A stretch of 64,000 nucleotides of DNA from Thozetella sp. PMI_491. Lineage: Eukaryota; Ascomycota; Sordariomycetes; Chaetosphaeriales; Chaetosphaeriaceae. The stretch spans positions 1-64,000 of the forward strand of contig MU270038.1 of the NCBI GenBank assembly GCA_021432635.1, written 5' to 3'. Positions 25,135-64,000 of the stretch are shown here, piece by piece; the first letter of the stretch is position 1; every line of letters starts with the position of its first letter. The notes below the pieces were generated by a model. The model was not told the DNA's origin, searched no databases, and saw only the letters and a program-made list of their open reading frames with translations. A program made the position numbers and the translations under genes.

Positions 25135-27821
25135 CTAGGTATCTCGGTAAGGCGCGATCCCTTTCTGTAGCCTGGCGACAATCTCTGTCGCTTCCTCGGC
25201 ATTTCTCGCCTCAAAGTCATAGACCTTGTTCGGCTCACGTGGGTCGCGGTAAACAGTAAACTGGTTGGCAGTGTCAATCATCGTTGCCCGTTCGCGAGGC
25301 TGTTGTAACTGTTGGCCGGGTGAAAAAAACGTACCTTGAACTGGGTCGGATGCTTCCGGGAGACCTTGCATCCCAGGACGCTACTAAAATGTATAGTCGA
25401 CTTCTTGCCGTTGGCGTCCGTGATGTGGATATACTCTCCGTCAACGGAGAAGCTCCTCGTGTCGGTAAGGCCCATTCGCATCCGACCTCTTCGGTTCACC
25501 GTATACTTCTTGTAACTCATGTCAAGGCCGAGATCCTTGGCCACCAAGGCTTCTTGCGCAAGGGGATGCGGTCCGGCAACCCTCTTCCGGGCTCTGCCCA
25601 AGCTAGAATTGTCAGTGCCCAGTATCCTCGGCGACGAGCTGCTCGGTGAACCCGAGCCCGTCATAGTGAGCACGCCGTCAGTCCCGAAGCGCCGTCGGTA
25701 TAGGTCTAGATCGGCCACGCTGCCGATTGAGGCGACAGGTTGGTCCAGAGGAACAACGAGTCCCGAGCCGGGGAATTTCAGCACATGGCTGGCCACATCT
25801 AGCTGCCTCTTCCTGCAGGCTTCTTCTAGAATCTCCTGGAGGTACCTATCTGTGGTGACATCCAGCGTCACCATCTGGCCCGGGGGCAGGTCTGTCGAGT
25901 GCATATGGATCCGCAGCAGCTTCTTTTCGCCACGGGCAGCGGCACTCCGTGTCGGGGCTGGCTGTTGCGGGGCGGTCGGGACATCGGCATAGACAGTGGT
26001 GCCATGCCAAAACGTTTTGAGCAGTGGGTTGGGCTTGGGAGGAACGGGTTCGAACTTGGATGCGTCGGGCTTGGGCGTGTTCTTGGGGGTCACATCCTCC
26101 TCTTCATCGTCGCCGCCTCCGCCGCCCTGTTCTTGCCCATACTCGGGCGTCACGCTCTGGTTGTCAGCGAACTCGGAGGATGAGGCCTGCACTAGAGCAA
26201 AGATGTCGTAAACGGCCGAGTTGGACCGCGCCCTTCCCGCCCTGTTGTTAGCGGTGGTGAAGGAAGTCAACGGTTTCTTGCGTTCCAGCGGCGGGAAGTC
26301 GTCGTCAACCTCGCCGTCTTCTTCCACCATCCTAAGTGTCCACCAGTTGACATTTAGCTTGTCGCTCGGCAGAGATGGCTCGAGCTTCTCCTCGTTGTAC
26401 CGCCAGAGGCTGAGTCCGATTAGGTCGGCCACCGTTACAGTCCTGTTCGAGCTCTCGCCCTCATGGACGCTCCGACGGATGAGCACCTCGAATGGCCTTG
26501 ACGGCTTTGTAGAGAAGGGCGCAAAGATGCGCAGCCGCAACGGGTTCGGGTCACCCTGGCCAGATAGAGAGGCGAACTTGACAAAGGGAAGGTTGGGCTT
26601 TGTCTTGTTCGCGTTCAATGCGGCGGATATCAAACTCTTCGGCTGGATCATGCTCATGGGGCGGATCGTGCTCATGGGCCGGGGCGGGGGTAAGTCTCCC
26701 ATTGAGATCTGCAAGGGGGCGGGCATGGCCGAATTTCGAATGGTAGACCGCCTTGTGAAGTCCCGCGGTGGAGTGCCGACGACCTGGGTGGTCGGCGATG
26801 CGTTGAGATGCTGGTCCACGACCTGGAGGAGGGACGTCGAATCAAGACTGCCACCTACAAAGGCCGAGGACCCATCGGATCCATCAGAGTCGTCGTCATC
26901 GTCTTCTTCCTCCAAAAGATCGCTCTCCTGACGCTTGATGCCCATGGTGGGTTCTGTGTTCATTCTCACCGACATTTTCGCGGCCCTTTCTGCCGCTCGC
27001 GCAGCCTCGCGAGCCTTATGGAACCCCGACGCATCGAACTCGTTGTCCGAGGAGACCTCACTGCTGGTGACAGTATCCCGCCGTGCCCGCTCCTTTACCG
27101 TCTCGAGCGCCGATTGCGAGCCTCTCCTCGGAGGCGGCGCGCGCGGGGAGGAGACATTGGTGGCCTGGCGAAGGTTCGAAGACTGTATTGGCGATGAGCC
27201 TGAGCGAGTGCGTAGAGGCATCTTGGAGAAGCTAATCTTCTGGGCGGCTCGTTGCTCGGGCTCGTCGTCGCTCTCGTCACTGAGATCACTGCTGTCGTCC
27301 TCTTCCATCTGCTCCCTCCGCCTCCGCCGTTTGGTCGCCATTCCAGGGCCAACCGTGTCGGTGCCACCACCGCCAAACATGCCTGTTTCGTCACCTTCAT
27401 CCTCCAGGGTCAGTGCAGCTGCTTGAGGGGCCTGGAAGTATTCTGAGGCGACGGCGGTGGGAATCGGGGGCGAGTGGGTTCGCTTGATCAATGCCGGATT
27501 TGGTCGCCATCCTGCCGATTTGAAGGGGGCCGAGTTGAGGAAGCCCTCATTGAGAGTAAAAAGACGCTCTCCAACTCCGTCGGCAATGTCGTTTAGATAG
27601 TTCGTCCGCAATTGGTAAGAAACGAGGCTGCATCCGGCCACGTTAGCACAGCTCGTGGGAGAGGGGAAGAGGGAAACCGGTGAAGATTGGGCCACGCCAT
27701 TCCATGGCCTGAATCCATTTCAACGTTCAAAGCTGAATGAGAGAGGTCGGAAGCAATTGCTTCCAAGCTACAAGAACAAAAACCCGGGGTAGGCATACTC
27801 TTCGACTTGGATGACCGACAT
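25135..27821 (-). CDS. TORC2 subunit Sin1/Avo1
   Basis: Essential scaffold subunit of TOR complex 2 at the plasma membrane; it presents AGC kinases to TOR. Exons 27821-27799, 27627-25335, 25260-25135 give 813 aa. Domains in order: N-terminal SIN1 motif YQLRTNYLNDIADGVGERL (residues 12-30), an acidic/basic low-complexity linker with MATKRRRRREQMEEDDSSD, the CRIM domain from about 365 (LRIFAPFSTKPSRPFEVLIR, ADLIGLSLWRYNEEKLEP, VNWWTLRMVEEDGE), a Ras-binding-like region (LLRIHMHSTD, TTDRYLQEILEEAC) and a C-terminal PH domain (MSYKKYTVNRRGRMRMG to DPREPNKVYDFEARNAEEAT). Exon 1 is only 23 nt (MSVIQVE + GA), spliced over 171 nt to give EDLVSYQLRTNYL, matching the family start. The final 74-nt intron splits the PH domain at HPTQFK/FTVYRD. 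Divergent from the PRCC gene. Confidence 0.95.
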
Positions 27822-28365
27822 TGCGATAACGCTTGGTCCAAGGGAGCGTCTGTTGGCTTGGATTTGGCGATTGGCATCAGTGGTGAATTTGATGAACCAA
27901 AGCGAGCTCGACAGCCATTTCAGGCTGGACTTGTAAGGAAGAGAAGAGGCAAGGGAGGAGGGCAGGTAGGCTGGTGTAGAAAGGAGGCGGGGGGAGGGGG
28001 TTGAAGCCGGAGCTGCCTCGTAGGCGAAACACCCCAGGTAGCGCGTCCGTGGGGTCACCTAGGTCAGCAAGTTCACTGAGGAAGGGGTAGACCCAAAAGT
28101 AAGCTTCTGATTGGACAAGAAATCGAGGCGGGCCCGCCTAGGTACCTACCGATTTAGCGAGTGGAAGAAACCACACCAGAAATCGAGACAGCATCACAGG
28201 CCTCCTACTCGAACTCGGCACGTGCATTTCTTTCAAAAAGAGAAACAACGACGGAAGCAAAGCAGCAATGCAGTAATCGCGGTCAAAGAGCCACCACACA
28301 CAAATATACACACATACGCACACACACCTCGCGCCGACGACTCGCCGTGCTCAGCACCTACGAGC
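27822..28365. promoter_or_regulatory. Divergent promoter between SIN1 and PRCC-family gene
   Basis: 544 bp between the two start codons. The PRCC side ends in a CA-rich leader (28297-28329). An open frame continues upstream of the PRCC ATG to 28111 but is low complexity with no motif, so it is taken as leader. Confidence 0.5.
28297..28329. repeat. CA microsatellite in 5' leader
   Basis: An imperfect (CA)n tract interrupted by ata and tacg, about 37 nt before the PRCC start codon. Confidence 0.7.
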
Positions 28366-29526
28366 ATGGGCTTGGTGGACTACTCCGACTCTGAGTCGGA
28401 GTCGGAGTCGCCGACGACCCAACCCACGAAGCCGACCATCGATGTTGCCTCCAAGAAGTCATCCAGCAACCCGATCGCCCGGTCTTCCACTGGCAAGATC
28501 CTCGTCAGTCTCCCGGCCAGCTCCGCTGCGAACCCTACACAGAGCGACGAGCCGCCCTCCAAACGCGCCCGAGTCGGCGCCGGCCCAGGAAGCAGTCGCT
28601 TCAGCAACTTTGGTGCCTTCCTTCCGCCACCCAAGGCCGTCAAGCCGGTCGCGCCGAAGGGAGCCGCGCCGCGACCTGGCGTGCACCTCAAGACGGGCGC
28701 AGAACCCGCGTTTAGCAGAGAAACGGACCCAATAAGCGAGGAAGGTGATGCTCTCAGTAGAGCTCCAGGATCTGGACTTAGCCTGCCATCGCCCAAAGTG
28801 TCGTCCGGCCCGACGATTCCTGAGGGACAAAAACCGGAAGAGGAGGTCAAGTTGGTGGGCAAACCCTTGATGTTCAAGCCTTTGTCTGTGGGAAGGAAAC
28901 CTACAAAGAAAAAGAGAATAATCCCCGGGGCTGTGCCAAAGCAGCCAGCTCCCACAGGCGACCATCAAGGCCCGGTAACGAGCACGATGGTAGCCCCCGA
29001 GGAACCGGCCAAGAAGAAGGTGTCCCTGTTCTCCATGGATGACGAGGCTCCGTCTGTCGAACCCGTACCACAGGCGGCGGCTACCTACGAGCCCCTGTTT
29101 GGAGTAGGAGGCGGAGAAGAGGACGGCGTGACCGAACCTTACCCGACAGACACAGGGGCTGCTTTCCTCGCCCAGCAAGACCAGCTGCTACCGTCGCGCT
29201 CGGCGCCCCAGTCGCTTTCTATCATGGCTGACGATCTTAACCTATCGAAGAAGGCGCGACGCGAGCTCTTCGGACGCAACGGGCCAGGAAGTGGCGGGGC
29301 CAAGATTGTAAACTTCAACATGGAGCGCGAGTACGCACACAACGAGGCAGTGCGTGCGTCAGGCGAGCAGCAGGCCTACAACCCGGTGCGGGCGATCGCT
29401 CCGGGCAAGCACAACCTGCGGCAGCTCGTCGACGCGGCGCAGAACAACCAAAGCGCGCTCGAGGACAGCTTCGCGGCGAACAAGAGTAGCAAGCGCGAGG
29501 CCGGGTCCCGCTATGGGTGGGGTTGA
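28366..29526 (+). CDS. PRCC-family nuclear protein
   Basis: Single-exon gene of 386 aa. It begins MGLVDYSDSESESESPTTQ, the typical fungal PRCC opening, followed by Pro/Ser-rich segments with FGAFLPPPKAVKP and VHLKTGAEPAFSRE, then the conserved C-terminal PRCC region (ADDLNLSKKARRELFGRNG, IVNFNMEREYAHNEAVRASG, HNLRQLVDAAQNNQSALED). Animal PRCC is a nuclear protein tied to pre-mRNA splicing and the MAD2B checkpoint; the fungal role is not well defined. Likely nuclear, given the KRAR and KPTKKKRI basic clusters. ATG 28366 is chosen because the conserved start follows it and upstream in-frame sequence is low complexity. Convergent with the next gene, with only 397 bp between stops. Confidence 0.88.
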   Translation: MGLVDYSDSESESESPTTQPTKPTIDVASKKSSSNPIARSSTGKILVSLPASSAANPTQSDEPPSKRARVGAGPGSSRFSNFGAFLPPPKAVKPVAPKGAAPRPGVHLKTGAEPAFSRETDPISEEGDALSRAPGSGLSLPSPKVSSGPTIPEGQKPEEEVKLVGKPLMFKPLSVGRKPTKKKRIIPGAVPKQPAPTGDHQGPVTSTMVAPEEPAKKKVSLFSMDDEAPSVEPVPQAAATYEPLFGVGGGEEDGVTEPYPTDTGAAFLAQQDQLLPSRSAPQSLSIMADDLNLSKKARRELFGRNGPGSGGAKIVNFNMEREYAHNEAVRASGEQQAYNPVRAIAPGKHNLRQLVDAAQNNQSALEDSFAANKSSKREAGSRYGWG

Positions 29527-38600: not shown

Positions 38601-41600
38601 GATGCTGCTCAAACTCTCGATCCTGGATATGAGCATCTAACATAAACTGTCGAAACTCAACGTTCATGAAAAGCTGGGTGAAGAGAGAGTTCAGGTAGCA
38701 AGTGTTGGACAGATTCTTGAGGCCAACATAACCGCAGGCAGCCCGGATGGCCTTGGATCGCTCAAATTGAGGGTAGAGGTCATAAGCATAGTAATCACCT
38801 GTCCAAAGTGTCAGCTAGGGCCTTGGACCATAGGCATCGATAAAAAACAACATACCATCGTCGTCGTTGTCGAAGGGAACTAGCTCGCTAAGGTCTCGAA
38901 TCAGGAACCCCAGCTGACGCCTGTCATCGCTAATAAGCGCGAATAAGATGTCGATCAGCATGGCCCGCGCAGGAGGGTACAGGATTGGGCGGCGCTGATC
39001 GCTGTGCGGCATTTGGCCATCTCCTCTCTCGAAGGGAGGGAATAGATGCTTCCAAAAGAGTTTGCGCGCAACACTTCTGTTAGATTCGGTCAGACGGTAC
39101 CCTCAGGTATTACAAGAAGACTGTTGGGCTTACTCCTTTGGTAGCATGCTCAAGTCTATCGAATATCCTTCCAAGCAGAGCACGCAGTGAAGCAGCTGGA
39201 CCAGGCCGAAAGCAACGACGTCGGTTTCGTCAGGTTGGGTGACGTCCTGGCAAGTGATCGAGTTAGATCTACCGACGTATTTGCGAGCAGAGAAACTATG
39301 GTAAAGCATGGGTACCTCAAACGTCGTATGGTCCAGAAGAAGCTGGCACCAGTTGTTCAGGACTTGCTCGAGATCAAGAACCTGGGACTGAGACACCCGC
39401 AATATCTTGAACATGCTGAGGCAAAGCTCAAATAGTTCGCTGCAGGTTCCAGGGTGCGCTGGAGCTGTGGCGATGAGAGTAGATACCAGTGGCCAGAAGA
39501 AGCTAAGGAATTCGGAACTCCTTGCCACCGAGCTACTAAATCAAGCTGGTTAGTATCACAGCTTAATACCCAGAAAAGAATGCCGCACCTCGTTTGACGA
39601 GTATTCTCTCGAATAAGCGCTACCGTGTTCTCCCTGACTGCAGAGCGTTTATCGCCCAAGATGAGTTCACCTAGTAGACCCGGGATGGAGACATGGTTGC
39701 AGAATGCTGTCCAAAAGGTTTTGTTTACCGAACAGCTCGCAAAGATACTGTGGAGAGCCATGTAAATATGTCTCGCGGAGACATCCGAGCTATTCGCGGT
39801 AGAGGCCAATAACGATAAGATCGCTACAAGGCGATCCAGTAGGTCGGCGTCGAGGAGGTCCGTCGAAGAAGGGGGTAAAAGGGGTTCTGGTCACAAGTTA
39901 GAGGAAGCGATCCTGAAAGAGGTTTACTTTGCGCACCTTCCAGCAGACAAACTAAACACTGCACGAGGGAAGAGCTCAGTTCCACCTGGAGCTCGATGCT
40001 GGGACATTGCGCAACGACCTCTGCATCGGTTATTGCAGCGACGACCAGAGACATAGCTCTTGCAAGCGGGGCGGAAGAGGCGTCTGGCAAGCTCTCTCCC
40101 GCATTGTGATCTGCCGCAAGATCCGAATTGCTGGCTTTGCTGCGGTTTGACGTGAGATATTCTTGCAAGACGTACACGCCATAAAGAGAGCGGAAAGGCT
40201 GCCCTAGCGGGAATATCTGCTTGTAGGGCGTTGATTCCTCCTGGATAGCACGCAGCATATTCTCATCGGCAGGCAGCTTGACCAAAAAGCTGTAGATCTG
40301 TAGATGTGTTAATACCACCACGATATGGTCTCGCCAACCTCAGGAACCGCGTGGAAATGTACCTCTTGAGCCAGTTTCTCCTCCATCGTCAAGTATTCCC
40401 ACAACTCCTGAAAGTGGCCCAGAATTTCAATGTCAACAGGCGACGCACCAGGTCGAACACGAGTGGTGGGTGAAGGTGGTACATCAGACTCCCTCTTGAC
40501 AAGTATTATGCCATTGTGAATTTGGAGGTCTTCCAAAGACTTGCAGATGTCGTTCTCTCGAGGGACGAAAGGCCTTCCCCTGTAATATATGCGGTAGTTG
40601 GTGAAACCGGTTACCTCACGAAGACTAGCCAGCAAGGATGCAGCGGTGTTGCGTCTGCCTATTTTGAGAGGCATGACATCGGTTTGGCAGTCACCGTCGA
40701 ACGACTGATATTTCAACTCCGCAGACTCACCGTCAATATCACTAGGAGGTTCTAGAATCAATGCTCGCAAGTCCGGTGCCGAGAAGTGAGCCTTTGCTTG
40801 GTGTAGTCGATGAAACTCACGCAGAACCGCGAGCGAGCGGATGAATAAAAGCTCTTGTTCTTGGACTTGCTGTTCCGATGCAACGATCACCATGGATTCG
40901 TCATCGCCACTGGCGGTCCCATCGTTGAATGCCTTGAGCTTGGTCGCGGCGGAGAACAGCTGGCTCAAGCACCGCCGTACAAGACCCAAATGAACGTTCC
41001 GAGCTCGGTAATGCGGGAATGATACGATGGAACGGCTGTCGATGTACACGTCATTGACGAGTGTATGTATCGCTTTTTGCTCGATCGTGTGATCAGGGGC
41101 GGTAAGAATCATACGCCACAGCTGTTCGATGCCGGATTGATCCGCGCTTTCAGAGTCGTCGAGGATGATGCTCTCAGGGTCATTAACCAGAGGCAGAATA
41201 CCCTCGCGGACAAAGTCGAGGGCTCCAGGGCAAAAGCATTCCGGTGCGAGTGTCGGTAGATACTCGGTGAAGCAAGTAAGTACAAAAGGGTTGTCCGCCC
41301 GGGTCTGCGTCTTCTTCAGTGAGGTATTGAAGATCTGCCAGGCGACATATCTATCCTCCTGGCAAGCCGCCCCGCTGCCCACGAGCAAATCCCAAAGTTT
41401 GAGGCCGAGCTCTTTGGTGATTGATGAGGGCTCATGTGACAAAATGCACGTTATCAGTTCTTTTCGTGGCGTGTTGTGCTGGCCGCTGATAACGGCCGGA
41501 AATCCTGCTTTTCGCGCCGCCGTGCTCGCTGCCTCGAGTTCTTCCACCAAGATGCGCGTGAGGCCATGATCCACAGTCAGGTTGTGAAGATCCATTCGGC

Positions 41601-43998
41601 TCTGGTATGGCTTCAAGACAAGCGAGAGAACCCAGAGGCTTCCAAGCGCAGTCTCGGTCTTCCCAGAGATGTCTCGCAAACAGTCAAAATAGATGTCGCG
41701 CCGCGTGTCAGGAGACGGCCCGGGGACGAGCAGTTCCTTGAACTTTTGAAGGGCGAATTGCTGAATATCGAAGTACGCCGTGTGGGACTGCGGTCCATAG
41801 ACGGATGAGAGCCGAATGAGCCGTATACAGAGGGTATATGGGGCTGCGGCCTGGACAGTTCGTTCAAAGCCGAACTTGTTCGGAAGTTGCCTCAGAATGA
41901 GGTCGAAGAGCTCCCGCATGGTGGGACTAAATGCTTCCACAGGGACGGTGCTCAACTTCTCGCAGAGATATATCAAGCCTTCGTATGTAAAGAGTTGCGT
42001 GATACGACCGATCATTCGGATCAGAGCGTCTGATACTCGCGGATCTTGGGTCGAGCTCACCGTCTGCCACAGGGCATCCGTGTGTTCATTAGTATACGTC
42101 TGTGAGACCACGAGGAAGCCAACTATGTTGCTGCTCTCGATGGTAATCTCTGGGTGGCACGTCGGGCCCAGGATATACGATACCAACCCAGTCCGGAGGA
42201 GGAAATCTGCGATGTACTGCAAGTACATCCGACTCGCTTCGTCCGGTACGTCGCCGTACTTCCGCCAGATAGCCACCAGGTCGTTACACATGGAACTGAC
42301 CGCCATGACGCGAAGTTGCATCTGGCTAGACATGATCATCTTGGTAAAAACGGTGAACTTCCAGTGCTGTGCGATGGCCTCCGGCACGTGCTGAGAGGCG
42401 ATTGGGGGACGACTCCGCCGGTGCTCCTCTACGGTTTCGGGGGGCACGATGCGATCGGCTGTCAAGCACATCCGGTATATCTCTGTCAGAGCGTTGACAA
42501 GAATCGACGCAGTATCAAAGGATAGATGGTTAACGTGTTTCTCAATGATGGTCGACAAAGTAGATGACACTGTCTTAAAGAACTGGTATGCGCGTGTCAG
42601 CTGGGCCTTGGGGCTCTCGTTGCTATCAACGTTGCTGGCGTTCTTTCGAATATGATCCCGCAAAAGGGTGTCTACCAGCACGCTGGGGTAGGCGAGAACA
42701 TCTGTGATCTTGGGGAACCGTGGCACAGCTCCCACCAGGAATTGTACTAGCTCTTTCAGGTACCTCACTGGGCCGCCTTGAGACGCCAATGACGCGTGGA
42801 ACTCTCCGAGGACAATGTTGATGTCTGCCGCGTAGTCGCAGTCAGGGTCCCCGTTATGGAGCTGACCATTATGCAGGATGATCTCTTCCCGTCTAGTGAG
42901 GAGGGCGAATGCATGGATAAAGCCCAGAGACACCAAGCCTGGGATCTGCGACTGCTCCGTCATTGGGCCCATAGCATTGAGCAATCTTAAGTCGTACTCG
43001 ACGAAGAAGGCAGTCAGCCTCGCAAAAGATCCATAGAACGCCATGATCTCTTGCCAGAGCTTGCCACGGGGGTAGGGCATCCTACTAACCGTTAGAGGCG
43101 ACCAGGACGCAGGATATGGACGACAGACTTACTTGCGAGTTAACATGAACAGCACCAATTCAGGGAGATTCGACCAGAGCTCGTTATGGTCCTGGACCGA
43201 CTTGAGCATCTCCTCGCCGCCGGTTGCTTTGAGGTAGGCAAGGCAGATGTCGATCCAGTTCGAAATATCCCTAGACACGCTCTCGTGGGTGGGTAAGAAC
43301 TGTGTCAACCGAGCGATGGCTTCAGGATATGACTCTGCGGGGTCGCGATAGGGGAAATCGGGCGAAGGATCGACGAAGATGGCGGAAGGCAAGCCGGCCA
43401 GCCCTCCGACTGCTGGCTGGCCAGCATCGAACCCAGAACCATCATCCAGCTGGAAGGGGAGAACCTCGACTTGCGGGCTGCCCGCCCCCGAAGTGGACGT
43501 CGCAGGCGTGTCGCCAACATTCCCGCTCTGAGAGGGGTCCACCTCCGAGTCCTCTATGCTGATCTTGACATCACCGTCCATGTCGGCTGGGGCATCGGTC
43601 GGGCCGAGCTCTGCTGGGATTTGGGCTGTCGGCGATGTCGGAGACGAGGGAATCGCATCCAACGGGCGAGAAGGCGTGCGAACGTTGATCGTGACTCGGC
43701 TCGATCGTTCCCCCGTGAGTGGCGGTCGGGATTCGGCCACAGGTTGCTGGTGCGGCTGCTCGGGGGTCTGCGGAGTGGTGGGGTCTGTCGGGACCTTCAT
43801 GGCGGTTGCCTCTTGCTGGTCAGCAGCGGGGGAGCCGACCGAGTCGATGGATCGGGTAGTCGAAGCACCGCTGAGAGAAGTGCGACGACGTTTTCGGGAT
43901 AGGAGGTCGCCTTCGTCGAAAGGGTTGGGGCGGGTCGAGCAGGGCTCAGAAGAGACGGCGCGTTCTCTCGACTCGACGTGCCCCGAAGCTTGGTCCAT
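35692..43998 (-). CDS. Giant ubiquitin-specific protease (USP9X/USP34-like)
   Basis: Cysteine protease that removes ubiquitin from proteins. Ten exons: 43998-43133, 43081-40363, 40297-39937, 39886-39589, 39535-39134, 39076-38856, 38798-38177, 38122-35967, 35907-35848, 35774-35692, giving about 2,595 aa with every junction in phase. The first 1,620 residues are a helical-repeat-like scaffold with a ubiquitin-like stretch before the core (YRIYYRGRPFVPRENDICKS). The USP core starts VGLKNLSNTCYLNSLFTQLF with nucleophile Cys1656; a CxxC ... pair appears in KYKCSSCDRH; the His box is ESGHYYSYIRER (His1906) with WVEFNDDVV after it. All catalytic elements are present. The apparent stop at 35929 is intronic: a GTATAG donor at 35966 and CTAAC/CATAG acceptor restore frame to NVLEPLARLAVAEDPEEDG, then a further intron leads to the acidic end DISMPADGEPQ. 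Introns are 50-73 nt. Confidence 0.93.
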
Positions 43999-52651: not shown

Positions 52652-55600
52652 ATGGCCTCCGAGGAGCCGGTGAGTCGCGCGCCATTGCACCCGCCCCTCT
52701 CACTGTTGCTCCTTCTTCCCTCCTCCTCTGCTGCTCCCCGCCGACCATCGCGCATCATTCTGACGCTGACCCTGCTTAGGTGCATCCTCTCCGGCTTTCT
52801 AAGAACGGCTCAGCCGCTTCGCCTAGCAAGATGGGGAGCGCTATTCCTCGTCCGCTTTCTGAGATCCCTCCGACCGAGAGGAGGCGCAACTCGCCGAGCT
52901 GGAATCAATCGTCCAAGGTGAGACAGCCGCATTCCAACCTTTGGCGGTCCTGAAGCGACTAAAACCCCTCCCCAGAAAATGGCACTGAACACGGACTCTT
53001 CTCCGTTCCAGTCCTCCCCGCTCGACGGGGCTACATCACCCCGCCTCTACTGGCAGAAGAAGGGCCTCGAGACGGAGAACGTCTTCGGTGCTCGTTCCGG
53101 TTCGCCGTCTCCTACCCGCCGCTCATCCATCGAGCGACTCCAGAAAGCCTCGCGCGTCAAGAACAGCAGCATTCTTGCCCTCGAACAGAAGCAGGAATAT
53201 GACCCCACCAGGGTTCCGCATGTTGAGCGTCCGTTGGCTAAGGTCCAAGGCAATGCATTCGGTGGCACCGGCCGCGGCCTCGGTCACCAGCGCAACGAGA
53301 GTAAGACTGCGCTCCCTCTCTACAACCCTGCTCTGCCCCCGCCGGCCAGCAACCCTTTGCGTCCACAGACGCCCAGCAAGGACCAGGCCTCTCCCATCAA
53401 GTCATCTCTCTCCAGCAGATTCAAGAGCAGCTACGACCGGGAGACGGGAGCCTGGTCGGCCGACACGTCGTGCGATGAGCGCGAGCTACCGGAGGGCAAG
53501 AGCCTGCACCGCCACGCCAAGAGCGTCACTTTCGACGCGGCGCCTCCTCAGGTGAACGAGTATGAGATGGCAACTCCCGACCTTTCTTCCATTGGAAGCA
53601 ATTCTAGGGAAGGAAGTTATGACTCGGGAGAGGAGTATGACGACGACGACGAGCACTATATGGCGCATGAGAGAGAAGACCAGGACGATAGCTTCGATGC
53701 TTCCCTGGAGGACACTGACAAGACGCCGGTTGTTGGCCCTGATGACTGGAGGCAGGACGGGCGTGGTGATTCATACGAGCGAAGTCCACTGCCCGAAGAT
53801 GTGCCTACCGCTCCACGCCCGCAGCACAGTCGCACCGACTCGTCTAACTCGAACGGTGACCATCGGCCTCTCCCTCCGCTTCCGGGCATGGGTCAGTTGG
53901 CTAGGTCGCATTCGACTTCTTCTAACGGCTTGTCAGCGACCGCAGAGCGCATGCTTGGTGCCCACCGAAGTCTTCCTTCTCCTCCTCCGGCTTCTACGAC
54001 AAAGTCGGAGATTCAGAACATCGGCAATACTAAGATGACTCTTGAAGAGCGCCTCAAGCTGATGATGCTTTCCGACGACAGCAAGTCGGCCGCGGAGCAG
54101 CAGCGTGAGCGCCGCATGAGACGTGCGGGCAATCGTGACCGCGTCGATAGCCAGACGCCGGAGCGTGAGGTGCAGAGCCCAGCTACCCAGGAAGAGGAAT
54201 ACGAAGAGGAAGACACTATCGGCGACCTCTCGGGGCTCGAGGAGTATCAGCTCCCTCCCCGTATATCCCGCGAATCGATCCTCCGCCGCGTCAATGGTAA
54301 CAAGGCACTCGAGCGCGAGTCTGGTTATAACTTTTCATCACCCGCCGGTGGCTCCCCTGAGCGGCAGCTTCCTTATGACCGCGATGTCCCTATCCCCAGC
54401 ACGGAAGACTCCGTCATCGAAGAGCGGGATGAGGAGGAGGAAGAAGAAGAAGAAGAGGACGATGCGGGTAGCGTCATCGTGAAGAGAAACATCGAAGATA
54501 AAGAAGTCGACGTCTACTCCATTCCCGACATGTACCAAGGATCGGAGACCCAGGACGAGCAGGACGATCAGGACGGCGAGAGCCACTATTCCGACAGTAC
54601 ATCTGGAAAGACGAAGGCAGTGGATACCGAGGACGACCACGGGTCTACTCCCCGGGCTACCAGTCCTGCCGAGGAAAATCCATCCTTCGCCCACCTGATT
54701 CATGAGCAGCCTATCTTCTCCGACGAAAACAAGGGGCTTGGCTTGCGACTTGACGCGATCAAGCTGCCTATGCCCCATGAAGCTGAGATCTCGGTCGAGA
54801 AGGACGCGCGAATGATGGCGGATGTTCATGCCTTCCTCCAGCGACCGGCGACGCCAGAGCAGCCTCGCAAGGGCAAGCTCTCAAAGCCCGAATATGATGG
54901 CTCTGGATGGGGAAATCCCGATGAAGAATATGATGACGATGAGGACGAGGACGAGGACGAAGAGCCCGGCACTCCCGAGTCTGTCATTCATCACCCTATG
55001 CCTGACTACGAGGAGGAGATCCGTGACTCGCCTGCCGTCCCAGACCAGGTGGCTACTATCAAGTCGGCATCTGGCTCCAAGCTCAAGACCCGGCCGTCTG
55101 CAACCCCATCCGACATTATGGCCATGCGAGAAGCACGCCGACAAGTGAGCCGGGAGATCCCCGACATCCCACCCATTCCCGAGCGCCATCGCAACCGAAT
55201 GTCTCGTGACATGGAGGGTGACATGCACCTGTCCCCACACGACGACTTCCTCGAGCGTCACCCGAGCTTTAAGAACCGCAGTCTTACTTTGGATCTTGAC
55301 TATGGCCTCAGTCTCGATCAGGATTTTGAGCGGGTTATCGAGGCACAAAAGGTGGCTTTCCAAAAACTTGTCGTGACCCCCCCTACTGGCAGCAACAGCA
55401 CAAGCAGTCACTCTGCGACCAGACAAGCGTCTGGCAGAGATGCGACCGCGGCTAGCGCCAAGCCCATACAGAACCTTGACACTAACATTCCATCCCGCAA
55501 GCAGCGCGGCTACCTCATGCGCCAGAACACCAAGGTTGTCACGGCCAGCGACAAGGAAGCGGAGGACCGATTCTGCCGGTCTGCCGGAAACTCACCTGTG

Positions 55601-57167
55601 AAGCAGACCCGTCCCCAGTCGTGGACCGTTGAGCCTTGGAATGGTCAGACTAGAAAGCGGAGCGTCAAGAAGCACCAACGCCCAACGACTGCTGGGGCCG
55701 TCCCACCCCTTCCTGGACAAGAAAGCAATGCGACGGTTCTCAACCCGCTCGTTGAGGAGGATCTCGCCGTCGACTTGGCCACCGAAGAGAGTGGCGAGAG
55801 GGGCCGTCTATTTGTCAAGGTCATGGGGGTGAAGGACCTTGACCTCCCTATTCCCAAGAGTAAGTTGAAAACACGATACCAGAGAGGGTAGAGTATCTAG
55901 CTAACGGGAATAGATGAGCGGACCTGGTTCAGCTTGACTCTGGACAATGGCGTCCATTGCGTCACAACCGCCTGGTTAGAGCTCGCACGCAATGCCCCCA
56001 TTGGCCAGGAGTTCGAGCTAGTCGTGCCCAACGACCTCGAGTTCCAGCTGACCCTGAATGTCAAGCTCGAGAAGCCAGCGCCGACGAAGGCCATCCAGTC
56101 ACCCACCAAGATTAGTAGGCCAAAGACGTCAACTTTCAGCAGGGTCTTCGCCTCGCCCAAGAAGCGGAAGGAGATGGAGCTCCGTGCTAAGGAAGAAGAG
56201 GAGCGCCTGGCCCAGCAGCAGCGTGAGGCTCAGGCCAGGCAGATGAATGCCCACCCCACTGCCTGGGACCTGCTCTCGCCCCTGACTGCTGAGGATGGTA
56301 GCTTCGCTAGGGCCTACATTTGCCTCAAGGAGCACGAGACTAAGTGCTTCGGTCGACCGTACCTCACCGAGGTGGCCACCTTTAACGAGTGGGCGACCGA
56401 GGAGGCCGGCTTCGCCTCGAGCGTCAAGAGCAAGCGCGGCAACACTGCTGTGGTCCGCCGCGCCCCGTACAAGATCGGAAAGCTCGAGCTTCAGCTGCTC
56501 TTCGTACCTCGTCCCAAGGGCACGACAGACGACGATATGCCCAAGAGCATGAACTCGTGCATTCGCGAGATGAAGGCGGCCGAAGAGCGCCTTGCCCGCA
56601 ACTGGGAAGGACACCTCAGCCAGCAGGGAGGAGATTGCCCGGTAAGCTCAGCTAGTCCCGACTCCGTCACAGAGCCGCATGCTAACAAATGCTACGCAGT
56701 ATTGGCGTCGCCGCTATTTCAAGCTGGTGGGCACAAAGCTCACTGCGTACCACGAGGCCACTCGCCAGCCTCGTGCCACCATCAATCTGGCCAATGCCAA
56801 GCGCTTAATTGATGACCGCCGGTCGCTTACCGAGAAGGAGACGACCGGGAAGAACGGCAAGCGCCGTCGCTCTGCATTCGCAGAGGAGGAAGAAGGATAC
56901 ATGTTCGTGGAGGAGGGCTTCCGCATCCGGTTCAACAACGGCGAGGTCATTGATTTCTACGCCGACAGCACCCACGACAAGGAGGGCTGGATGAAGGTGC
57001 TCTCGGAGGTCATCGGACGCGACAGCCTCGGCGCCGATGAAGAATCGGTCGGCAACCCGCGCTCCAAGACCAAGTGGTGCGAGCTCGTCCTCAAGCGGGA
57101 GGAGGCCCTGCGGCGCCGTGCCGAAGGGCGCCGCGTGCACTCGCGCACCAAGAGCATGTACATGTGA
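52652..57167 (+). CDS. BUD4: Bud4/anillin-like septation protein with C-terminal PH domain
   Basis: Anillin-related scaffold that organises septins and the contractile ring at septation sites. Exons 52652-52669, 52780-52917, 52976-55859, 55914-56641, 56700-57167 give 1,411 aa. Exon 1 encodes six residues (MASEEP). The long N-terminal part is disordered and acidic, with SPSPTRRSSIERL, FDAAPPQVNEYEMATPDLSS, MTLEERLKLMMLSDD and Glu/Asp runs. The Bud4/anillin-homology region runs from about 950 to 1256 (RLFVKVMGVKDLDLPIPKNE, TWFSLTLDNGVHCVTTAW, EFELVVPNDLEFQLTL), joined across a 54-nt intron. The PH domain starts exactly with exon 5 (YWRRRYFKLVGTKLTAYHEA, residue 1257) and ends near WMKVLSEVIGR. 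All junctions are in phase. Convergent with HIS6. Confidence 0.94.
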
Positions 57168-60526: not shown

Positions 60527-62512
60527 GGTCGACCGTGCGAAGCGGCGCAGCCAGAGTGAAGACTCGTAGCTCGCCGCGGCTCACGTTATCGAGGGCGACC
60601 TCTTCGTGCTAGAGCGCCAGGCAAAGAAACGAACAGCGGCCACGCACGGCAGGCGCAACGATTATCCGGGCGGTCGCCAGAAAGAGCATCCTAACGCCCC
60701 CTGGTTGCGTAACCACAGACCGCGCGGATTGGACCATACGTACCAATCGAGGGGATTGCCCGCCGTAAGCTAGGATCGCAATCCGTCCGTGATCCCTCCA
60801 CCCAAGTGCTCCCGCAGCGCATTGCCGCCTCATTAAACATCAAGTCTCAGCCAAATATAGTCCCAGCTTAATAACTTCCCTCGCTCGTGGCCCCCTACCG
60901 AGAATTTCCGTGGCCTGTCTGACCCCTTTTTATGCATCCCGTGGCACCCGACACTCGAGCCTGGTAGCCATTCCCAAACACCGCCCCTGCCATCCCGCTC
61001 CCGTCCCCTTCCATCCCATCGCCCAAGTGCGGCACCCGATCCGTTGTTCTAGGCCCCATGGAAACAAAACATCTAGAAACTCGAACGCGGCACATGAGAG
61101 CGGCCCGGCCAGCCCGCCCTCGATCTCTGCGCCGTGCCTCGCCTGGAGGTTGAAACAACCTGCAAAAGGCTGACCGCATGGCAAAGGAGAACCGGTGCTT
61201 CGGCCGAGTGGTGTGTTTTACCTCTTCGTCATAAGCATGCCCATGGAGGCCGAGCAGCTCCGTGCCATTGAGTGACAGTAGGACGGCATGTCTTGGCAAA
61301 ATAAAGATGGCTTAGAGAGGAGGAGGAGGAGGGGGGGGGTTAAGGAGAGGAGGGNNNNNNNNNNNNNNNNNNNNNNNNNNNNNNNNNNNNNNNNNNNNNN
61401 NNNNNNNNNNNNNNNNNNNNNNNNNNNNNNNNNNNNNNNNNNNCACAAGGTGGCAACCAACTAGGGCCGTCGGGCCCCGAAGTCGAGAGATGCTATTTGG
61501 AAGGATTGGGGCGGAAGGGCGAGTGGAAGACGCTCCGAGACGAATTCATAATGGTGATGATGATGATGACAAAGGAGCCGTGACTACTGTACGTCCATAC
61601 AAACACCTTAGACGGCTGACGGGACATGGAATCTATAGCGGATGTCCACTTCCATCTTCACCTTTCCCAATCCTGGTTGATCTTGAGAGCTCGTCTCTCG
61701 ATGCTACAAAGAATACGCGACATCGGACGAAGTGGTTGACTGCCCATCACAAGGAACCTTCGACTAGCTAGTCGTCGCACGTCTACTCTGCCAGTCGGGG
61801 GATTCTCTACTTCTCGTTACGTATGATTGTAATCACTGCCATTTCGTTCCTATGGCTACTGGTCCGTCTCCGGGTCCAGCCATTGCCTCGTACTACACGT
61901 AAGATAAAGAAACTTCGCACAAAGTCCTTCCTCCCATCTTCCCGCTCATCCCATCCCTGGTATCTTGGTGCCTCCACCTTTCGCAGAAGAAAGAAAGAAA
62001 AAAAAGGGCGGGGGTAAAAACGTCGCAGAAGGAGCCCCCCAAAATCAAGCTATATATACAAATGGCATCGTTCTTCCTCCGCTTCCCTTTCATGTTCCGT
62101 GGTCCTCATTTCCTGCATGAACGGGTGCAACCGATGCTGAAACGAAAAAGCAAATGATGGGCGTGGTCATCCCTGACCTCACCACATATCCCTCTATGAT
62201 TGTCTTTTTTGATGTGCCGCAAAATGTTCTGCTCCCAAGGAAAAAAATGCGGCCGAGGTCGTGAGGAAGAAAAAAAAGAAAAAGATGGACGAGTCGCAGA
62301 AGGCCTCAAGATGCTGAACGCCCCCGTAGATGACCAGTGCCAGACTCGAAGCCGGCAACAAACGAAGAGAAGATGAAGGCGAAATCCCGCTACCATGGGC
62401 CGCAGCTCTGCAAACGAAGCGAGTATTCAAAACACCAGACCGCCTTGGTAACATACACAACAACTCCCTCAGACGATCTCGGATTCTTGTGAGCGTCGAA
62501 ATCGGGCCCGGC
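60527..62512. other. 3' intergenic region with assembly gap
   Basis: Between the FAF1 and STE12 stops. A G-rich tract (61319-61354) runs straight into 89 Ns, so the gap probably reflects a sequencing-resistant simple repeat. T/A-rich runs near 61985-62000 and 62245-62285 would suit a long STE12 3' untranslated region. No gene is supported. Confidence 0.5.
61355..61443. other. Assembly gap (N run)
   Basis: 89 undetermined bases. The left flank is an AGG/G-run purine tract. Confidence 1.
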
Positions 62513-64000
62513 TTACATCATGCCGCCTGCGTTGATGGCCTGGGGCTGGCTGATGGTCATAGGCATGCTCAGCGTCTGAAGGCTGTTGAAGGTCGGGGCG
62601 CTCGACATGACGGGGCCGAGTCCGCCCGAGTTTGGGGTGCCGCCATTGGCGATCGAGTTTAGCGAACTTGTGATGTAACCGCTCTCCGAGGTGGGCGAGG
62701 CTTCCTCGCCGAGGGAACCGAGCTGGTCCTCGCCAGAGTAGTCCTCCTCCTCCTCGCCGGAGAGGTTCAAGCCGCCTTCAGCACCCTCACCACGGTCGTG
62801 GGTACGCTTGTGCCTACAAGAGAGCAATGGTTAGCCATGCATCTTCCTTCAAAGGGTGTGCCACGATCGTCATGTGATGTTGTGCTGCTGCTGTGTGGTG
62901 ACTCTGGCGGTTTGGTTGTTGGTTTCACACTGGTTGTTGACATGCCACACGCACAACATGACGTTTTTTTCTCCCTTTCCGTCTGACAAAAGAAATGATA
63001 CATCAAGGAAAGGTTAGGGGCATACTGTGCTAGGTTGTCTGATCTGGAGAATGCCTTGCTACAATAAGGGCAGATGTAGGGTCTTTCTTGGGTATGTGTT
63101 CTCACGTGTCTGGAAGTTCAGTCAGATACACGGCAGGAGGCTTGTGTTGACAAATGAAAAATCTCCAGTCTTACCGCTTCAGGTGCTCGAGGCGCTTGAA
63201 GAGACGGCCGCAAGTGGGGATGGGGCAAGAGTGTGATTTCTGGGGGTAGGGGCCAAGTTCCATCACGGTGGCTGACCGGGCTCTGCGTACCACATTGGGG
63301 CCGGCCTGCTGCATCACCTGTCGCTGCTGCTCACCCATGGGGCCGGCTTCGTCGGCCAGCTGAGCGAAGTCCTGCTGCTGCAGAGTCATGGGGTTGAGCG
63401 CTGGGCTGCCCTCGACCGTCGACAGCGGGGTGCCGTGGCGGGACAGCTCCATGAGCTCCTTGTGTTGCTGGCTGGTCATCGACATGCCCGAGTTGCTGTA
63501 CGTCAGGCCGGGAGGGGAGTTGTCAGCAGACTCATCGCCTTCCGCAACGGGTCCAACCGAAGCCGACACCGACCTCCGCAGGTCAGAGGGGCGGTGGGCA
63601 GCGGCAGTCGCCGAGGCGATAGCCGCCGCGGTGGCCGACATGGAGGGGGGAATCGAGGAACGCCTCCTCCTCTGCTTATACGTTGGGGATCCCTCAATCA
63701 CCGAGTACACGTTGTTGCCGCCATAGCCACGGTTGAAGGTCGGGCCAGCTAGGTTGGAAGGCGGGAGCTGAATCATGCCATTGAGGCCGTTCACGCCGTT
63801 CAGGTGATCGGGAATGGCAGTGTAGAGACCAGTCTCCTCATTGGCAATGTACGCGGGCTCAGCAGCCATGCCCAGCGCCTGCTGGGGAGGCGTGAGGGGC
63901 TCGAACGAGATGCCCCGCTGGCTATAGTCCTCGTAGTGCGAAGAAACAAAAGAAGGAGCGGGCGAGTACTCGAGAGCATAGGCGGGCATTGAGGCGTGAC
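62513..64000 (-). CDS. STE12: Ste12-family transcription factor, C-terminal part (gene runs off window)
   Basis: Transcription factor at the end of the mating/invasive-growth MAP kinase pathway; filamentous ascomycete members add two C2H2 fingers to the Ste12 homeodomain. Only the C-terminal part lies here: exons 64000(partial)-63175, 63109-63026, 62813-62513. The frame is open to the window edge (...HASMPAYALEYSPAPS), so the homeodomain must lie beyond it. Seen features: a Ser/Pro/Gln-rich middle with YKQRRRRSSIPPSM, finger 1 CPIPTCGRLFKRLEHLKR+HVRTH, finger 2 CPYCSKAFSRSDNLAQ+HKRTH and the acidic end with EEEEDYSGEDQLGSLGEEAS. Introns of 65 and 212 nt interrupt finger 1 and finger 2 at the same position, just before the first zinc-binding histidine. 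The exon between them is 84 nt and phase-symmetric (see findings). Confidence 0.93.

What the first reader, a model, noticed from the sequence alone, without database searches (positions are those of the whole stretch)
62813..63175. Symmetric 84-nt STE12 exon whose skipping fuses two zinc fingers into one intact finger
Both introns in the zinc-finger region interrupt after CA/CG in phase 2, each just before the zinc-binding His of its finger. The exon between (63109-63026) is exactly 28 codons. Skipping it keeps the frame and joins the Cys half of finger 1 (CPIPTCGRLFKRLEHLKR) to the His half of finger 2 (HKRTH), giving C-x4-C-x12-H-x3-H, a complete single finger. The downstream intron is also unusually long (212 nt). 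Zinc-finger splice variants of Ste12 are reported from plant-pathogenic ascomycetes; the exact hybrid-finger geometry here suggests a conserved switch between a two-finger and a one-finger factor.
Basis: partly seen in the sequence, partly recalled or inferred. Interest (0 to 1): 0.75.

Follow-up and report, generated by a model that had tools for sequence, protein, structure and literature searches.

The report
Skippable zinc-finger exon of fungal STE12
A fungal STE12 gene has an 84-base exon whose loss would merge its two zinc fingers into one; the geometry is real, but exon skipping in the same gene is already reported from two other fungi and the neat fit follows largely from how zinc fingers repeat.

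Summary
Introns 63174-63110 (65 nt) and 63025-62814 (212 nt) flank an 84-nt exon; both are phase 2, just before the first zinc-binding His of their finger, and skipping gives C-x4-C-x12-H-x3-H in frame. The gene is a full STE12 (STE domain; 693 aa predicted).

PMC10789715 states that exon skipping of STE12 was described in Colletotrichum lindemuthianum and Botrytis cinerea; Trichoderma atroviride and T. reesei showed none, Cytospora showed intron retention. The geometry does not itself suggest a switch: two introns at the same place in neighbouring 28-codon fingers give it. A second gene here (L020) appears to have the same design with a 174-nt exon (loose search only), and 5 of 10 intron-split fingers are cut within 3 nt of that His.

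By inference: the skipped exon carries finger 2's whole DNA-reading helix, and both helices match a finger pair in this genome that looks Msn2/Seb1-like, a kind that binds AGGGG. Skipping would remove an AGGGG reader and leave the homeodomain. No transcript data or fungal relatives were available. Interest is low.

The parts
63175..64000 (-). STE12 coding exon, the part inside the window; ends with the Cys half and helix of finger 1; the exon and the gene run on beyond 64000 (predicted ATG at contig C24:64938, first intron C24:64838-64772)
63110..63174 (-). intron A, 65 nt, phase 2, GTAAGA / branch-like CTGAC / CCAG
63026..63109 (-). 84-nt (28-codon) exon: His half of finger 1, linker, Cys half and whole recognition helix of finger 2
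62814..63025 (-). intron B, 212 nt, phase 2, GTATGC / branch-like CTAAC / GTAG; no stop codon in the frame entered from the exon
62513..62813 (-). last coding exon: His pair of finger 2, acidic C-terminal tail, stop codon

Best explanation
This is the orthologue of filamentous-ascomycete STE12 with its two C-terminal zinc fingers each cut by an intron just before the first zinc-binding His. The 84-nt exon is normally included. When it is skipped, probably at low or stage-dependent level as reported for other species, the frame is kept and one hybrid finger remains, built from the Cys half and DNA-reading helix of finger 1 and the His half of finger 2. Shown: gene identity, splice-site anatomy, frame, hybrid finger. 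Inferred: that the exon is ever skipped here, that the two fingers together read an AGGGG-like element (helix residues R-E-H-R and R-D-N-Q are those of a finger pair in this genome that looks Msn2/Seb1-like), that one finger alone does not hold DNA, and that the skipped form therefore acts through the homeodomain alone. The exact fit is a by-product of the 28-codon finger repeat plus introns at matching sites, not evidence of selection for skipping.
For: STE domain at 2.1e-58 and two zf-C2H2 stretches. Exon geometry. Exon skipping in C. lindemuthianum and B. cinerea as stated by PMC10789715 and alternative splicing in both as stated by PMC4214791; 'conserved exon-intron structure' (PMC3925392). 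Helix residues equal those of the L010 fingers; CGBP1, whose zinc-finger domain is called highly homologous to those of Msn2 and Seb1, binds AGGGG by EMSA (PMC8344781). A second gene with what appears to be the same paired-intron design, and introns just before the first His in 5 of 10 split fingers, with 0 such among 3 decoy hits (no formal test of clustering).
Against: No transcript data for this genome. T. atroviride and T. reesei show no alternative splicing. PMC10789715 also says that both C. lindemuthianum versions truncate the C2H2 finger, which does not sit well with one full two-finger form, and that the same event had not been found in other plant pathogens. The RNA of the region folds no better than shuffles (z +1.10). 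Splice-site weakness that would favour skipping is unsettled: the exon's own acceptor is weakest of a 13-intron set but ordinary. The AGGGG reading rests on helix residues only, and I saw no binding test of Ste12 fingers.
Confidence: 0.6

Rival explanations
1. Constitutive exon: both introns are always removed in this species, skipping occurs only as noise, and the geometry has no function.
For: Only full transcripts in T. atroviride and no sign of alternative splicing in T. reesei. The geometry is expected from paired introns. Fungal splicing is proposed to work mainly by intron definition, where a missed site gives retention and not skipping (PMC3925392 passage).
Against: Skipping is reported for C. 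lindemuthianum and B. cinerea.
Confidence: 0.3
2. Intron retention is the main alternative event: retained intron B keeps an open frame of about 70 codons and ends about 15 codons into the last exon in another frame, giving a 679-aa protein with finger 1 whole and finger 2 without its His pair.
For: Open frame through all of intron B. Retention of the zinc-finger introns is reported in Cytospora kinase mutants and of both STE12 introns in an F. graminearum lsm8 mutant.
Against: A stop-free frame of this length and composition arose in 7.9% of 20,000 simulated introns. Intron A retention stops at once (566 aa). F. graminearum intron-retained transcripts are said to be mostly degraded, and the Cytospora forms to be rare.
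Confidence: 0.2
3. The 212-nt intron holds a regulatory element or hidden exon that controls skipping.
For: Its length, three times intron A, and internal candidate sites.
Against: The fold of the whole region is no better than shuffles; no comparators to show conservation; another split finger has a 221-nt intron.
Confidence: 0.1

Closest known systems
CLSTE12 of Colletotrichum lindemuthianum (Wong Sak Hoi et al. 2007; paper not held, known here through; the name CLSTE12 is recalled)
   Same: STE12 orthologue of a filamentous ascomycete; exon skipping that alters the C2H2 region; PMC10789715 calls the exon-skipping region highly conserved in different fungi
   Different: Transcripts shown there, not here; exact boundaries could not be compared
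BcSte12 of Botrytis cinerea (Schamber et al. 2010; paper not held, known here through)
   Same: exon skipping and two splice variants of the orthologue
   Different: both variants are said to complement the mutant except for sclerotium formation, so a functional switch looks weak there
Ste12 of Trichoderma atroviride and T. reesei
   Same: in T. atroviride homeodomain, two C2H2 fingers and two C-terminal introns (60 and 63 bp); two introns in T. reesei
   Different: no alternative splicing found; both T. atroviride introns are short, while one here has 212 nt
Four-finger C2H2 gene in L020 of the same genome
   Same: two predicted introns at the same codon of two fingers; skipping would keep the frame and fuse an intact hybrid finger
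   Different: phase 0, exon of 174 nt, loses a complete middle finger as well; not STE12; introns found by the looser search only

Membership tests
Ste12-like factors of filamentous fungi | N-terminal STE homeodomain-like domain | tested here: met
   PF02200, 195.9 bits, positions 1-109 of 109
Ste12-like factors of filamentous fungi | two tandem C-terminal C2H2 fingers | tested here: met
   two zf-C2H2 stretches, 51.1 bits together; 27.4 and 35.2 apart
Ste12 genes with exon skipping (CLSTE12 kind) | in-frame cassette exon in the zinc-finger region | tested here: met
   84 nt, phase 2 on both sides
Ste12 genes with exon skipping (CLSTE12 kind) | skipped transcript present | not testable with these tools
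   no RNA data
Ste12 genes with exon skipping (CLSTE12 kind) | same exon boundaries as in C. lindemuthianum | not testable with these tools
   paper not held, no fungal relatives held, no relative of the STE domain in the viral or prokaryote collections
AGGGG-reading finger pairs (Msn2/Seb1/CGBP1 kind) | recognition residues -1, 2, 3, 6 of both fingers | tested here: met
   R,E,H,R and R,D,N,Q, the same as L010; that L010 is Msn2/Seb1-like is recalled, not from a call, and its binding is not tested
AGGGG-reading finger pairs (Msn2/Seb1/CGBP1 kind) | binds AGGGG | not tested
   no binding data

The most novel reading that the evidence does not exclude
Splicing of one exon decides whether Ste12, the filamentation and mating factor, can also read the AGGGG stress element: the full form links both programmes and the skipped form acts through the homeodomain only. 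The paired introns keep this option open across ascomycetes.
Probability: 0.1. Interest if true: 0.55.

Novelty: new member of a known kind. Interest (0 to 1): 0.22.

Why it matters
If the skipped form is made, it would change one DNA-reading module of a central developmental regulator without touching the homeodomain. The result here mainly supplies a caution: perfect-looking hybrid fingers arise wherever introns sit at matching places of repeated fingers, so geometry alone should not be read as a switch. The match of Ste12's helices to those of likely AGGGG readers gives a simple binding test for what its fingers are for.

Tried and rejected
Relatives: searches of viral contigs and prokaryote genomes with the STE domain found none (16 and 91 pattern matches, no relatives), and no relatives of the window's genome are held. 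So exon boundaries in other species could not be compared.

Splice strength: ab initio intron sets from 34 stretches (about 192 kb) were too noisy. The scripts ended in errors and gave no intron set; one search gave 51 introns with many likely false long ones; one search gave 21, of which 13 were used for scoring. In one search the four STE12 sites are ordinary (47th to 59th percentile). In one search both donors are at the 15th percentile, the exon's own acceptor is the lowest of the 13 and the last exon's acceptor is at the 46th. Not settled. In some searches my finder itself joined 63174 to 62814; this is an artefact of requiring 90 nt of exon on each side, more than the 84-nt exon offers, and is not evidence of skipping.

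RNA structure as a cause of skipping: no support, z +1.10, 88 of 100 shuffles fold at least as well.

Retained intron B as a designed coding stretch: not excluded, but its open frame has a chance probability of 0.079.

Solved structures: 207 distinct sequences match the finger pair, generic C2H2 proteins among the 60 shown and no Ste12 among those 60; not used further. Structure prediction was not used, since the spliced forms are not letter-for-letter readings of the window.

Papers: nine searches. A search for 'CLSTE12' with 'splicing' gave no paper. PMC11518743 and PMC5579035 (passages) gave nothing beyond a citation or a passing mention of Ste12 splicing. One search, on fused fingers, gave 605 papers, of which I saw a listing of 10, none of them about Ste12 by title.

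Full report
What is there. The minus strand at the right end of the window holds about the last 60% of a STE12 gene; the predicted start lies beyond the window at contig C24:64938, with a first intron of 67 nt. The whole predicted protein has 693 residues, a complete STE domain (2.1e-58) and two C2H2 fingers. Both introns are phase 2 and fall one base before the first His codon of their finger (position -1 for both).

Does the fused finger hold up? The skipped form has 665 residues and one finger, CPIPTCGRLFKRLEHLKRHKRTH. Pfam's zf-C2H2 model matches it over all 23 positions at 25.7 bits against a cut-off of 25.2 in a 33-residue query, and at 24.3, below the cut-off, in a 48-residue query. Finger 1 alone has 27.4 and finger 2 has 35.2. 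So it is a credible finger, slightly poorer than either parent.

Is the geometry special? It needs only one coincidence, two introns at the same codon and phase in adjacent fingers; with a 28-codon repeat the 84-nt length, the frame and the hybrid then follow. I searched 34 stretches of this genome for fingers cut by an intron: the window, L009-L015, and 26 of L016-L045 (L016, L017, L032 and L036 left out as overlapping), about 192 kb. The loci lie mostly around the best of 150 zinc-finger matches and of 50 matches, so genes whose fingers are all cut are under-represented. A strict search found 10 cut fingers in 8 stretches from 1855 donor-like sites; four decoy donor types gave 3 from 9383 sites, none of the 3 just before the His. 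Five of the 10 are cut 1 or 3 nt before the first His codon: STE12 twice, L029, L022 and L040. No formal test of clustering was made. A looser search limited to that place gave 11 rows: 9 cut fingers in 7 stretches, and 2 skip joins. Two of the 7 have two cut fingers, STE12 and L020, and in both of these the exon between is in frame and its loss fuses an intact hybrid finger; in L020 the exon is 174 nt, 58 codons. The looser search had no decoys, the L020 introns did not appear in the strict search, and no intron is confirmed by transcripts. Among 10 uncut tandem finger pairs, 4 have a His-to-His distance of exactly 84 nt (only distances divisible by three and up to 150 nt were counted).

What is known. 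STE12 splicing variants are in print. PMC10789715 (passages) states that exon skipping was described in C. lindemuthianum, giving two versions whose abundance changes with stage, and in B. cinerea, which has two variants; that the skipped region is highly conserved in different fungi; and that the same event had not been found in other plant pathogens. It also says that both C. lindemuthianum versions truncate the C2H2 finger, which I could not reconcile without the paper. Its own data show intron retention at low level in samples of Cytospora kinase mutants. PMC4214791 (passages) found only full transcripts in T. atroviride, data not shown. PMC11053031 (passages) found no sign of alternative splicing in T. 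reesei. PMC12886710 (abstract and passages) reports raised retention of both STE12 introns in F. graminearum without Lsm8. PMC3925392 (passages) speaks of a conserved exon-intron structure and proposes that fungi splice mainly by intron definition. The two primary papers and the review are not held, so I cannot say whether their skipped exon has the same boundaries or whether they describe a hybrid finger. I therefore make no claim that the hybrid finger is unpublished.

How it would work. The exon carries the whole recognition helix of finger 2 (RSDNLAQ), while finger 1's helix (RLEHLKR) lies wholly upstream of intron A. The hybrid keeps finger 1's reading residues and borrows only the His half. 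The residues at -1, 2, 3 and 6 of both fingers (R,E,H,R and R,D,N,Q) are the same as in the finger pair of L010, the best match outside STE12 (62% identity over query residues 7-56). From recall, that pair is of the Msn2/Msn4/Seb1 kind; PMC8344781 (abstract and passages) reports AGGGG binding for CGBP1, whose fingers it calls highly homologous to those of Msn2 and Seb1. By the usual recognition code (recalled) the STE12 pair should read about AAGGGG. This is inference throughout, and the fingers are reported dispensable in N. crassa PP-1 while Mst12's are needed for virulence in M. oryzae (PMC4214791 passage).

Other possible products. Retaining intron B leaves an open frame through the intron and gives 679 residues with finger 2 lacking its His pair; such an open frame has a 7.9% chance at this composition. 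Retaining intron A stops the protein at 566 residues.

Splice signals. Both introns have consensus-like ends and a CTRAC branch-like site that begins 16 nt (A) and 21 nt (B) before the intron's end. Whether the exon's sites are weaker than those of its neighbours is unsettled, and the RNA shows no unusual fold.

Verdict. A correct and careful observation of a known kind of feature.

Noticed in passing
L020 (G000:C80:175994-179062), minus strand, about 1337-1712: A C2H2 gene in which two fingers are each cut by a predicted intron (59 and 67 nt) at the same codon, phase 0; the 174-nt stretch between is in frame and its loss would fuse an intact hybrid finger and drop one complete finger.
   Followed up: partly
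34 stretches: Introns that cut C2H2 fingers often fall just before the first zinc-binding His (5 of 10 within 3 nt); a preferred insertion place or shared ancestry could explain it.
   Followed up: partly
window 62814-63025: Intron B of STE12 has no stop codon in the frame entered from the exon, so retention would give a 679-aa protein.
   Followed up: partly
L010 (G000:C51:219000-227000): A finger pair with the same four DNA-reading residues per finger as STE12 (R,E,H,R / R,D,N,Q), Msn2/Seb1-like by recall.
   Followed up: partly
window 61355-61443: A run of 89 N about 1.1 kb downstream of the STE12 stop; gap or withheld stretch, not examined.
   Followed up: no
window 25281-27695 and 28111-29523: A Sin1-type frame (CRIM and SIN1_PH domains) and a PRCC-domain frame lie close together on opposite strands.
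   Followed up: no
window, ten long frames: Six of the ten long frames scanned have a Pfam match at 1e-5 (kinase with DUF7891, histidine phosphatase, Sin1, PRCC, ubiquitin hydrolase with DUF3517, anillin); four have none, among them 40312-43080 (923 aa) and 52979-55888 (970 aa).
   Followed up: no
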